Below, piece after piece: positions 8,658 to 11,859 of a stretch of 27,845 bases of DNA. The translations under genes were made by a program, and so were the position numbers. The notes beneath the pieces were generated by a model. The model was not told where the DNA came from, did not search any database, and saw only the letters and a list, made by a program, of their open reading frames with translations. How positions within the stretch are numbered: position 1 is the first letter of the stretch; each line of letters begins with the position of its first letter. Source of the DNA: a virus; the IMG/VR virus record IMGVR_UViG_3300021976_000062, positions 1 through 27,845 of that record; one strand, 5' to 3'.

Positions 8658-9086
8658 ATGGCTACCTGGTACACGCACGGCAACAAGTGCGACAAGCGAT
8701 GGAAGACGCACCGGGCAGAGCACTGCCCCGCGTGCCACGAGACCTTCTCCGGAACCAAGACCGGAGACGCCCACCGAGTGGGCGAGCACGGAGTCACCGA
8801 GGGACCTGACCGCAGGCGTTGCCTGCCGGTCTCCGAGGTCCTCATCAAGAGGGGCAAGCGAGGCGCGTTCGGCCTCAAGTGGAACGAAGACCGCCAGTAC
8901 TGGCAGGAGGACGACCCAGACAGTCGCTTCAGAGATGTAGCAACCCCCCTCGATTCGAGTACACGCGGGCTCACCGGAGGTGAGCTGCTCCTGCAGTCCT
9001 GGACGCCAGAAAAGGCGGCCCTGCTCCAACGGATGGTTGCCGAGGGCCGGATCAATACACGTCGCATCACCAAGGAGGAGCAGTGA
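8658..9086 (+). CDS. FDXHR-type zinc-binding protein
   Basis: Encodes 142 residues. C11, then AEHCPACHETFSGTKTGDAH and RVGEHG (H22, C23, C26, H27, D37, H39, R40), reproduces the motif of the FDXHR putative zinc-binding family common in actinophages. In this copy the F of FDxHR is replaced. The C-terminal half is charged, with a TPEKAALLQRMVAEGRINTR helix. GAGGGG precedes the ATG by a few bases, and it is first in the rightward operon. Molecular role unknown; nucleic-acid binding is likely from the zinc motif. Its 3' end (AAGGAGGAGCAGTGAG) creates a Shine-Dalgarno-like stretch immediately before the stem-loop array. Confidence 0.8.
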   Translation: MATWYTHGNKCDKRWKTHRAEHCPACHETFSGTKTGDAHRVGEHGVTEGPDRRRCLPVSEVLIKRGKRGAFGLKWNEDRQYWQEDDPDSRFRDVATPLDSSTRGLTGGELLLQSWTPEKAALLQRMVAEGRINTRRITKEEQ

Positions 9087-9100
9087 GCCTCCCCACAGAT

Positions 9101-9524
9101 TTGAGCGGGGCCAAAGAACATGCGGAGTCCAATCCGGCCCCGCCCCGCTCAACCACTCTTGCTCAGCGGCCAAAACTCTGGCGAGGCCATCAAGAAGCCG
9201 CCGCTGAGCAACTAACTTCCCGCACCGGCCAGGTTGGCGTCGGAATCCATCATCGGTACGTCGGTGCGGGAACCATTCTTGCCAGGGGCCACGCGAAGCT
9301 CGAAGCCCAACCGCCCCTCGCCCCTCGCAACATTCTTCCGCTCCGGCCAATTACGTTGCGAAACCCAAGGTTGCCGCGCCGGAGCGGAGCAAGGCCCGCG
9401 ACAGTGGCCATGCCCGAGGCGAAACCCACAAGTCCAGCGCCGCTGTCGCGCTAATCGTCGAGCACCCCGGCAAGGGGTTGGCGACCCGCCGGGCTTCCGT
9501 GCCCCCGGCGGCCGGGGTGCTCGA
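9101..9524 (+). ncRNA. Array of seven tandem stem-loops, probable structured RNA
   Basis: Units at 9101-9152, 9159-9211, 9217-9272, 9279-9330, 9337-9388, 9398-9449 and 9458-9524 each fold into one long hairpin. Stems: TTGAGCGGGGC, TTGCTCAGCGGC, TTCCCGCACCG, TTGCCAGGGGC (one mismatch), TCCGCTCCGGC, GCGACAGTGGC (one G-U) and TCGAGCACCCCGGC, each with its complement about 30 bases later (loops 29-30 nt in five units, 34 and 39 in the others). Stem sequences differ but pairing is kept. Six units have GGCCA at the stem exit, and a core like GCGAAACCCA lies about eight bases into the loop. Linkers are short (CCACTC, CTAAC, CCATTC, CATTC in the first four). The 57-62 base period is not a multiple of three, arguing against coding. 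Strand is taken from the flanking operon; a DNA-level role (origin, recombination sites) is the alternative. This fills the otherwise gene-free 9087-9561. Confidence 0.75.
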
Positions 9525-9561
9525 CTCATCTCCAACACCCGAAACCCAACAGGAGGAAAGC

Positions 9562-10068
9562 ATGTCCAAGGTCAGCGAACTGATCGAAGAGGCGTGGGAG
9601 TTCCACGCCGAGTCCTACGGCAGTGAAGAGTTCCTGGAGTTTGTCACCAACCGAGCCTTCAACAAGGCCACCAAGAGTGACCTCTACCCGCTCGTGGCCA
9701 ACGAGGTCGGCAAGCGGTACCGCAGTGGCGTCAAGGCCACCGAAGACGCAGCCTTCGGCCCTGAGCCCGAGTTCCACGAGAACGTGCGCAACCTCAACAC
9801 CACGCCGAAGTACGCGAACCTCAAGCCCGCAACCCCCCACCGGGACCGCCTGGAGGCGGAGCGTCAGCTCATGGACGAGGGGTTCAAGCTCGACGGGGAG
9901 TACGTCCCCTGGGGCGACGCGACCGCCGAACAGCATGACCGACGCGCCAGCCAGCTCCGCAGCAAGGCGGGTGGCCTGGTGGTCACGGCTGAGCGTCACG
10001 AGCAGGCCGCCGCCCTCATCCGCCAGAACGGCGCCACCTCCCTGCGTGGCGTGGAGCGTGCGGCATGA
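9562..10068 (+). CDS. Conserved actinophage-type protein, unknown function
   Basis: Encodes 168 residues from MSKVSELIEEAWEFHAESYG; AGGAGG six bases upstream fixes the start at 9562. It is mostly helical. A C-terminal segment, YVPWGDATAEQHDRRASQLR... TAERHEQAAALIRQNGATSL, resembles a helical-hairpin motif seen in proteins of many actinophage genomes, without known function. It begins 37 bases after the stem-loop array, and CGAAACCCA, the conserved array-loop core, lies directly upstream of its ribosome binding site. An autoregulatory or array-binding role is therefore worth testing but is not shown. ATGA overlap couples it to the next gene. Confidence 0.7.
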   Translation: MSKVSELIEEAWEFHAESYGSEEFLEFVTNRAFNKATKSDLYPLVANEVGKRYRSGVKATEDAAFGPEPEFHENVRNLNTTPKYANLKPATPHRDRLEAERQLMDEGFKLDGEYVPWGDATAEQHDRRASQLRSKAGGLVVTAERHEQAAALIRQNGATSLRGVERAA

Positions 10069-10850
10069 GCACCTGGACTGACCTCCGCCTGGCGGCGGAG
10101 GTATACGCGGACTTCGAGAGCGTGGTCGTCAAGCTGAAGCAGCGCATCAATCGGGCGATCGTCCTCGACAAGAGCGTCTACGAGATGCAGTTGGACGTTG
10201 CGCAGCGCCAACTGACTGGCCGCCTGCGCTACAAGAGCAAGGGCGCCGAGTCCAGCATGCTGGAGGACTTGGAGGTCATCTACAAGGCCGTTGCGCCCAA
10301 GGGCATCCAGGACTGGCAGAAGGCCCAGAAGGGCATCGGCATCCCGTCCTTGGCCCGCCTGCTGGGCGACACGGGGCACCCGGTCCGCGCCGTGCCTCAC
10401 ACGGCGCAGCCGAACCCGGACTACGACAAGGACGAGCCCGCCAGCGAGGACAACCAGAAGACGATCCTCTTCTACGGCGAGCCGTTCGACAGAACGGTCT
10501 CGCAGTGGTGGTCATACTGCGGGCACGGTGACGCGAACCGCAGGCGTCGCAAGGGGATGTCTGATGACGAGGCCCTGGCCCTTGGCCGGCCTAAGGCGAA
10601 GATGCGCGTCCACCTCATGGCCGCCGACTGCGTCAAGGTCGGCATTACCCGGTTGCCGGGCGTCGAGAAAGGCACCAAGTTTTCTCCGGACACGCGCAAG
10701 GCCACTTCGCATTACGGCGCCGTGTACCTCGACCGCCGAACCAAGACGTGGGACCGCGAGGACTGGACCGACAACCACAAGAACAACGATGCCATTCGCA
10801 TCACGGCCAAGGAGATCCTGCGGGATCTCTGGTTGGCCGCTCGTGCCTAG
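10065..10850 (+). CDS. Transposase_20 (IS110/IS116 C-terminal)-like protein without DEDD domain
   Basis: Encodes 261 residues. After an N-terminal helical region, QKAQKGIGIPSLARLLGDTG (87-106) is a helix-hairpin-helix like the IPGIG...LLAEIGD motif of the IS110 C-terminal domain. It is followed by SQWWSYCGHGDANRRRRKGM (146-165), LGRPKAKMRVHLMAADCVKV (173-192) and SHYGAVYLDRR (215-225), which parallel the R-S-x-x-G...G...N-x-x-R-x-x-L and Y..Y segments of those transposases. The N-terminal RuvC-like DEDD catalytic domain is absent, so it is unlikely to be an active transposase. No IS ends are seen. It sits between the array-adjacent gene (ATGA overlap) and the integrase (eight-base overlap). 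A structural or DNA/RNA-binding role is inference. Confidence 0.6.
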   Translation: MSTWTDLRLAAEVYADFESVVVKLKQRINRAIVLDKSVYEMQLDVAQRQLTGRLRYKSKGAESSMLEDLEVIYKAVAPKGIQDWQKAQKGIGIPSLARLLGDTGHPVRAVPHTAQPNPDYDKDEPASEDNQKTILFYGEPFDRTVSQWWSYCGHGDANRRRRKGMSDDEALALGRPKAKMRVHLMAADCVKVGITRLPGVEKGTKFSPDTRKATSHYGAVYLDRRTKTWDREDWTDNHKNNDAIRITAKEILRDLWLAARA

Positions 10851-11859
10851 CGCAGTCCGCCTGAGCGAGGCCATAGACGAGTACCTGGAGAGCCGGGAGA
10901 CGCACGACGTCTCCCCCAACACCATCAGGTCCGAGAAGTCCATGCTCGTGGGGTTCTTGACCACGATCGGAAATCTGTATCCGAGGAGTATCGAGCCCCG
11001 CCACGTGGACGCCTGGCTGGCGGAGAACCGTCACTGGGAGCCCAGCACCAGGGCTCAGCAGATAGCCCGGCTGAGCGGCTTCCAAAAGTGGCTCACGGTG
11101 CGCAAGTACGTGGGCCGAGGTGACGACTTCCTGGAGGGTGTGCGCAAGGCGAAGATCCCTCGTAAGCGCCGGCCACGCATCGCGCTGGAGCAGTTCGGCG
11201 AGACACTGGCCCGGGCCACGGTCCCTCGTGACCGCATCATCGTGGCCACGGGACTCTTCCTCTTGGTGCGCGCCAGTGAGCTGACACCGATCAGGTGGCG
11301 GGACGACCACGACGACCACGTCTCCGTCTACCGCACCAAGACCGGGGACTGGGACGACCTACCGGTCGGCCCGGACTACAGGGACGAGCTGAACCGCTGG
11401 AAGCGACACGTGTGCGTGGAAATGGGCGTCACGGTGCCAGACCCGAGCTGGTACATCCACTGCGCCATGATGCGCCCGGAGTCCAGGAACACCCGAGGGG
11501 TGTTCATCTCGGGGACCGGCGAGTACCCACTGCTTCCTGACCGCCCGCTCATGACGCCACGGGTCAGGGTCCAGGAGGTGCTGCGCCAGCTCGGCATCAA
11601 CGAGAGGGGTAGCGGCATGCACACGTTGCGCAGGAGCGGAGCGAGGGCCTACTTCGAGTCGCTCCTGGCTGACGAGAAGGGCAAGGACGAGGCGCTGGCT
11701 GTCGTCCAGTCCATGCTCGGCCACGCATCTCCTACTCAGACGCTGGTCTATATCGGATGGGAGACAAGCCGGGCAATGCGCGACAAGGTCATCCTCGGTC
11801 GGCGTATGATCACGCCCACGGTCGAGGGCAGGGTGATTGAGTTGAGACCGAGGGGATGA
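10843..11859 (+). CDS. int: Tyrosine integrase
   Basis: Encodes 338 residues from GTG at 10843 (MPSAVRLSEAIDEYLESRET). A SAM-like core-binding domain (about 8-105) precedes the catalytic domain. Catalytic residues are visible: R143 in FLLVRASELTPIRW, K166 in YRTKTGD, H260-x2-R263 in MHTLRRSGAR, H294 in MLGHASPTQT and Y303 in LVYIG. It would integrate phage DNA into the host chromosome by site-specific recombination. The start was chosen because the longer upstream frame only duplicates the previous gene out of frame; the overlap with the preceding stop is eight bases. A short N-terminus suggests limited arm-site binding. It is coupled by ATGA to a small zinc protein that could be its directionality factor. 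Confidence 0.9.
   Translation: MPSAVRLSEAIDEYLESRETHDVSPNTIRSEKSMLVGFLTTIGNLYPRSIEPRHVDAWLAENRHWEPSTRAQQIARLSGFQKWLTVRKYVGRGDDFLEGVRKAKIPRKRRPRIALEQFGETLARATVPRDRIIVATGLFLLVRASELTPIRWRDDHDDHVSVYRTKTGDWDDLPVGPDYRDELNRWKRHVCVEMGVTVPDPSWYIHCAMMRPESRNTRGVFISGTGEYPLLPDRPLMTPRVRVQEVLRQLGINERGSGMHTLRRSGARAYFESLLADEKGKDEALAVVQSMLGHASPTQTLVYIGWETSRAMRDKVILGRRMITPTVEGRVIELRPRG

What the first reader, a model, noticed from the sequence alone, without database searches (positions are those of the whole stretch)
9101..9524. Seven tandem stem-loops with different stems but conserved loop core
Seven units (about 52-67 nt, period 57-62) each have an 11-14 bp stem. The stem sequence differs in every unit yet pairs perfectly or with at most one mismatch or one G-U. 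The non-stem parts are conserved instead: GGCCA at the stem exit in six of seven, a GCGRARYCCA-like core starting about eight bases further, short linkers (CCATTC, CATTC, CCACTC), and GGC/GCC closing pairs in six of seven. This internal covariation is hard to obtain without selection for the fold. CRISPR arrays (constant repeat, variable spacer) and type III antitoxin repeats (near-identical repeats) do not match; attC cassettes have ORFs between sites. I know of no described element with this layout.
Basis: seen in the sequence. Interest (0 to 1): 0.85.

Follow-up and report, generated by a model that had tools for sequence, protein, structure and literature searches.

The report
Phage array of dual-guide RNA hairpins
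The seven hairpins are a row of small guide-RNA units, each carrying two 9-letter address sequences for an RNA-guided DNA-binding protein (TasA) encoded just downstream: a phage example of the TIGR-Tas systems published in 2025, here with a second conserved partner gene that the published account does not mention.

Summary
The + strand holds seven tandem hairpins. The stems differ, and six of seven loops have a fixed layout: C|CA-N9-CG-N3/4-CCA-N9-C|G. Selected on the loop motif alone, 181 of 199 instances in this window and 65 tasA loci have the predicted stem; none does in a shifted register.

The interpretation "no described element" is wrong. This is a TIGR stem-loop array (Faure et al., Science 2025, PMC12045711): variable palindromic stems, two 9-nt spacers, boxes C (CCA) and D (here CG). 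The gene at 10065-10850 encodes the solo-Nop protein TasA. Its model's best PDB matches are TasR, TasH and IS110 recombinases, and it hits NCBIfam TIGR_Tas_endo at E 1e-14, below that model's cut-off.

Beyond the paper's main text:
- A partner gene (window 9562-10068; mostly phrog_4604, function unknown, no PDB fold match) sits directly upstream of tasA in 62 of 66 loci.
- Guide units are embedded, mostly in frame, inside tasA or the partner ORF in many loci.
- M. smegmatis phages related to Rufus (Fromanvirus) carry arrays whose first-unit spacers share 38% identity while tasA shares 98%.

No self- or cross-target exceeded controls. Verdict: new member of a known kind, with testable extensions.

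The parts
9101..9152 (+). TIGR stem-loop unit 1: 11-bp stem, spacer A AAGAACATG (9114-9122), box D/linker/box C CGGAGTCCA, spacer B ATCCGGCCC (9132-9140)
9159..9211 (+). Unit 2: 12-bp stem, spacer A AAACTCTGG, CGAGGCCA (linker one base shorter), spacer B TCAAGAAGC
9217..9272 (+). Unit 3: 13-bp stem (one G-U), spacer A GGTTGGCGT, CGGAATCCA, spacer B TCATCGGTA
9279..9330 (+). Unit 4: 11-bp stem with one mismatch, spacer A CGCGAAGCT, CGAAGCCCA, spacer B ACCGCCCCT
9333..9392 (+). Unit 5: spacer A ATTACGTTG, CGAAACCCA, spacer B AGGTTGCCG
9397..9450 (+). Unit 6: 12-bp stem, spacer A TGCCCGAGG, CGAAACCCA, spacer B CAAGTCCAG
9457..9525 (+). Unit 7: perfect 15-bp stem but a 39-nt loop that departs from the box C/D layout; probably degenerate or a variant
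9540..9548 (+). Lone CGAAACCCA (box D/linker/box C) without a stem, directly before the Shine-Dalgarno of the next gene; probable truncated unit
9562..10068 (+). Partner gene ('gene A', 168 aa): homologues directly upstream of tasA in 62 of 66 loci; 32 of 43 aligned members hit phrog_4604 (unknown function), though the window member itself has no library hit; no PDB fold match
10065..10850 (+). tasA: solo-Nop-domain TIGR-associated protein, 261 aa; model pLDDT 80.5; best PDB matches TIGR-TasR 9mty, TasH 9w04, ISCro4 9t56, IS621 8wt9; NCBIfam NF052498 TIGR_Tas_endo E 1e-14 (55 bits, below the 100-bit equivalog cut-off)

Best explanation
The region is a TIGR (tandem interspaced guide RNA) array of the stem-loop type, encoded by an unclassified phage and feeding the TasA protein encoded downstream. 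Inferred working: the array is transcribed with the + strand genes; host RNase cuts the linkers; each hairpin remains as one guide with two 9-nt spacers held open by box C (CCA) and box D (CG) on a symmetric TasA dimer. Spacer A pairs with one strand and spacer B with the other strand of an 18-bp DNA target (A9 followed by the reverse complement of B9). This TasA has no nuclease domain, so it would bind, unwind and bend rather than cut the target, probably silencing or blocking DNA of a competitor or host, or assisting DNA transactions. Shown here: array, unit anatomy, stem conservation with free sequence, TasA identity, spacer hypervariability in relatives, conserved partner gene. Shown by others in relatives: expression, processing, RNP binding and dual-strand targeting. 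Inferred: function and targets of this array.
For: The unit layout matches the published stem-loop arrays feature by feature. The spacers show no internal pairing, no consensus and fixed length. 181 of 199 motif hits chosen without looking at stems have the predicted stem, 0 in shifted registers; only 3 motif hits on the opposite strand, 0 with stems. tasA homologues found by protein alone carry >= 2 units on the same strand in 62 of 66 loci (window and Rufus included) and never on the other strand. The fold of 10065-10847 matches TasR, TasH and IS110 recombinases; NCBIfam TIGR_Tas_endo hits it at E 1e-14 and the Rufus homologue at 232 bits, above the cut-off of 100. In Mycobacterium phages related to Rufus, first-unit spacers are 38% identical while tasA is 97.7% identical.
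Against: No target was found: window spacers do not match their own partial genome better than controls; 157 guide pairs in 21 records show no self-target excess; 170 pairs against 1.93 Mb of phage DNA show none. Box D is CG rather than the UG of TasR arrays, although it agrees between its two positions, as the family requires. Unit 7 departs from the layout. The window TasA is divergent (55 bits, below the NCBIfam equivalog cut-off). No expression data for this phage.
Confidence: 0.94

Rival explanations
1. A sponge or regulatory leader: tandem hairpins present the same loop motif (CGAAACCCA) to one RNA-binding protein, titrating it or regulating the downstream gene, as CsrB does for CsrA.
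For: The conserved motif lies in hairpin loops and recurs next to the Shine-Dalgarno of gene 9562; arrays often precede genes.
Against: Does not explain two fixed-length 9-nt segments of free sequence, nor their fast change between near-identical phages while boxes and stems stay. The bound protein is identified as TasA, whose family uses the segments as guides.
Confidence: 0.04
2. A bridge-RNA-like recombination or mobility module: an IS110-derived recombinase uses the loops to join DNA.
For: The protein is fold-related to IS110 recombinases, annotated 'transposase' in PHROGs and in phage records; a tyrosine integrase gene follows in the window.
Against: No DEDD or other nuclease domain found in the 261-aa protein; many single-loop units instead of one RNA with target and donor loops; no flanking transposon ends seen.
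Confidence: 0.03
3. A protein-coding repeat region whose pairing is incidental.
For: An open frame (9083-9454) crosses the array, and in relatives some units are truly embedded in ORFs.
Against: In the window the linkers break any common frame (unit spacings 58-61), and the stems are conserved with free sequence.
Confidence: 0.01

Closest known systems
TIGR stem-loop arrays with TasA (Faure et al. 2025, PMC12045711; Peromyscus gut contig)
   Same: Tandem hairpins with variable palindromic stems; [quoted passage not shown] TasA without nuclease; phage location
   Different: Here a partner gene lies between array and tasA, box D is CG, and the loop linker is conserved (mostly AAAC-like). The paper's main text mentions no such partner, no units inside ORFs and no mycobacteriophage arrays
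TIGR dual-repeat arrays (TasR, TasH)
   Same: Two 9-nt spacers, CCA box C, G of box D pairing with C of box C, A-rich loop repeat; homologous Nop fold
   Different: Edge repeats are replaced by unit-specific stems; no nuclease domain
IS110/IS1111 bridge RNA and recombinase
   Same: Nop-like RNA-binding fold; loops with two guide segments pairing opposite strands
   Different: No DEDD domain found, many independent units, no transposon
Box C/D snoRNA with Nop5
   Same: Box C/D-anchored dual guides on a Nop dimer
   Different: No K-turn or L7 protein known here, DNA rather than RNA targeting in the family, phage setting

Membership tests
TIGR-Tas (stem-loop type) | Tandem units with palindromic stems of differing sequence | tested here: met
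TIGR-Tas (stem-loop type) | Two 8-12-nt spacers per unit, each between box C and box D, box motifs agreeing between the two positions | tested here: met
   9 + 9 nt in units 1-6; CCA/CG at both positions; unit 7 not met
TIGR-Tas (stem-loop type) | Neighbouring Tas protein with a Nop domain | tested here: met
   (fold and NCBIfam hits; the window protein's NCBIfam score of 55 bits is below the 100-bit cut-off, the Rufus homologue's 232 bits is above it)
TIGR-Tas (stem-loop type) | Array expressed and processed into single hairpins bound by TasA | not testable with these tools
   shown for the Peromyscus locus, not for this phage
TIGR-Tas (stem-loop type) | Spacers direct dual-strand DNA binding | tested here: inconclusive
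   no natural target found
CRISPR array | Near-identical direct repeats separated by unique spacers, cas genes | tested here: not met
   no direct-repeat family; no cas-like gene among the 10 neighbouring proteins scanned apart from an exonuclease-family hit partly labelled CRISPR-associated
IS110 bridge RNA system | DEDD/RuvC-like plus Tnp recombinase, one two-loop RNA, transposon ends | tested here: not met
   261 aa, no Pfam nuclease domain, seven single-loop units
Type III toxin-antitoxin RNA repeats | Near-identical short repeats next to a ToxN-like endoRNase | tested here: not met
attC / integron cassettes | Conserved outer simple sites with cassette ORFs between | tested here: not met
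   the outer parts are the variable parts, and no ORFs lie between units

The most novel reading that the evidence does not exclude
Stem-loop TIGR systems are two-protein systems: TasA works with an obligatory, so far undescribed partner (gene A), and guide units spread even into the flexible linkers of both genes, so that one sequence serves as guide RNA and as protein linker. The partner could be the effector, the processing factor or the diversifier of spacers.
Probability: 0.55. Interest if true: 0.72.

Novelty: new member of a known kind. Interest (0 to 1): 0.55.

Why it matters
The discoverers of TIGR-Tas state that natural targets, the role of nuclease-less TasA and the origin of spacers are unknown, partly because most systems come from metagenomes. 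The related arrays found here lie in cultured phages of the laboratory strain M. smegmatis mc2 155 (75 Mycobacterium phage records carry a TasA homologue). There spacers differ between nearly identical phages and units look shuffled between them, so targets, spacer turnover and TasA function become directly testable. The conserved partner gene gives a concrete candidate for the missing component.

Tried and rejected
Close protein relatives of gene A and of the integrase in viral contigs: none. DNA similarity to phages: none. Rfam: no family. Pairing between the two loop segments (pseudoknot): no covariation in 75 units. Self-targets in the window, in 21 records, cross-targets and exact 18-nt target scans of IMG/VR for four spacer pairs (only scattered hits at about chance level): none convincing. 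TasA by phmmer against PDB sequences: nothing. Gene A in Pfam, NCBIfam, PADLOC and PDB by sequence or fold: nothing convincing. A genome-contig scan found one distant MAG contig only.

Full report
Observation. The region 9101-9525 on the + strand holds seven consecutive hairpins. The fold of 9087-9560 is far more stable than shuffles (z -5.8, 0 of 100). Six strong hairpins by a strict count compare with a mean of 0.12 (maximum 2) in 300 dinucleotide shuffles. The opposite strand also folds better than its shuffles (z -3.4), as expected for inverted repeats, but the motif and its stems are confined to the + strand in relatives.

Anatomy. Units 1-6 share one layout, with a loop of 30 nt (29 in unit 2): stem...GGC | CA - spacer A (9 nt) - CG - linker (4 nt; 3 in unit 2) - CCA - spacer B (9 nt) - C | GCC...stem. 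The same layout turned up in viral contigs found with a DNA pattern. Over 75 units the two 9-nt segments have no consensus and no mutual pairing, yet constant length; the positions CA, CG and CCA are nearly invariant and the stem pairs change freely while staying paired. Those 75 units were chosen partly on pairing, so I repeated the test choosing only on the loop motif: 181 of 199 unique hits in the window and 65 tasA loci have the stem in the predicted register, 0 in any of six shifted registers, and the opposite strand has 3 motif hits, none with a stem. Unit 7 has a perfect stem but a non-conforming loop, and a lone CGAAACCCA precedes the start of the next gene.

Identity. The gene at 10065-10850 is related to phage 'transposase' phrog_4285. 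Its AlphaFold2 model (pLDDT 80.5) matches, as best hits in the PDB, TIGR-TasR (9mty, E 2.4e-5), several TasH structures and the IS110-family recombinases ISCro4 and IS621. NCBIfam TIGR_Tas_endo matches it at E 1e-14 (55 bits, below that model's 100-bit cut-off) and its mycobacteriophage homologue Rufus gp73 at 232 bits. It has no recognisable nuclease domain, so it is a TasA. The TIGR-Tas paper (PMC12045711) describes, beside the dual-repeat arrays, 'tandem stem-loop arrays' with two 8-12-nt spacers flanked by boxes C and D and variable but palindromic sequences in place of edge repeats, associated with TasA; box C is CCA, the G of box D pairs with the first C of box C, and the TasR loop repeat is A-rich. 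All of this is met here with box D = CG. The finding is therefore a TIGR stem-loop array.

How it most likely works. By the published rules, each hairpin would be cut out of the transcript, bind a TasA dimer and address an 18-bp DNA site made of spacer A followed by the reverse complement of spacer B, one spacer on each strand. I derived this order from the published C-5 rule and 8-nt 3' overhangs; it agrees with the IS110 bridge-RNA scheme as I know it. With no nuclease, binding, unwinding and bending are the expected outputs. Which DNA is addressed is unknown. The window's own genome fragment, 157 guide pairs in 21 records and 170 guide pairs against 1.93 Mb of phage DNA show no excess over partner-shuffled or wrong-orientation controls. 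Whole-collection scans for four guide pairs gave 0 to 6 scattered hits, about the chance level. Self-targeting is thus not the general rule.

Distribution and evolution. Starting from TasA proteins only, 64 loci were fetched from IMG/VR. Of 66 loci (these, the window and Rufus) 62 carry at least two units on the tasA strand, none on the other strand; several of the loci are near duplicates, so the number of independent cases is lower. Seventy-five Mycobacterium phage records encode a homologue. In relatives of phage Rufus (L079, L104-L115; Rufus and SarFire are classed as Fromanvirus; 'cluster A' in my notes is from memory) the array sits between the partner gene and tasA. Its stems and boxes are conserved between phages, while the first unit's spacers are on average 38% identical against 97.7% for tasA. 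Identical units recur in different combinations (for example L108 and L110 share unit 1 but not unit 3), which suggests exchange of units. This is what a guide under changing selection looks like.

Two things not in the main text of the paper. First, a gene directly upstream of tasA (window 9562-10068) belongs to one family in 62 of 66 loci. It corresponds mostly to phrog_4604 (32 of 43 members, unknown function) and has no Pfam, NCBIfam, PADLOC or PDB counterpart that convinces. Its profile was built iteratively on these same loci, so the weakest members (E near 1e-4) are less certain, but the strongest are unequivocal and always in the same place. [quoted passage not shown] Its stem-array locus has subarrays separated by about 450 nt called intergenic, the length of this gene; whether the gene is there I could not check, nor the paper's supplements. 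Second, in 15 loci units lie inside the tasA frame (27 of 32 in one reading phase) and in 5 loci inside the partner gene (6 units counted, all in the same phase), in flexible stretches. There the guide unit is also translated as a linker of about 20 residues. The window itself does not show this.

Confidence. Membership in TIGR stem-loop arrays is close to certain (0.94). The partner-gene linkage is well supported as a genomic fact; its meaning is open. The biological role and targets of this array are unknown.

Noticed in passing
window 9562-10068; L079 3199-3660 (Rufus gp74); 62 loci: A small partner-gene family (mostly phrog_4604, unknown function) lies directly upstream of tasA in nearly all stem-loop TIGR loci; it appears undescribed in the TIGR literature held here.
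   Followed up: yes
L130, L136, L121, L142, L138, L102, L119, L099, L132, L118 (tasA); L081, L103, L127, L131, L135 (partner gene): TIGR units embedded, mostly in one reading phase, inside coding sequences, at flexible linkers.
   Followed up: partly
L079 3660-4000, L104-L115 same region: Rufus-type mycobacteriophages carry arrays with conserved stems but hypervariable spacers; units look exchanged between phages.
   Followed up: partly
window 9457-9525 and 9540-9548: Seventh hairpin with perfect stem but non-conforming loop, and a lone box D/linker/box C motif at the ribosome-binding site of the partner gene.
   Followed up: partly
window 10801-11859: Tyrosine integrase gene overlapping the end of tasA in the same direction; the paper speculates that TasA might aid integrases.
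   Followed up: no
window 8658-9086: Phage FDXHR zinc-binding protein (PF24071) as the first gene upstream of the array on the + strand.
   Followed up: no
L046 490-778 and 1517-1678 (same contig as L103): Two sub-arrays in one phage share stem pairs in the same order (tccggcgggc, tccactgatc) but carry different spacers, suggesting duplication followed by spacer replacement.
   Followed up: no
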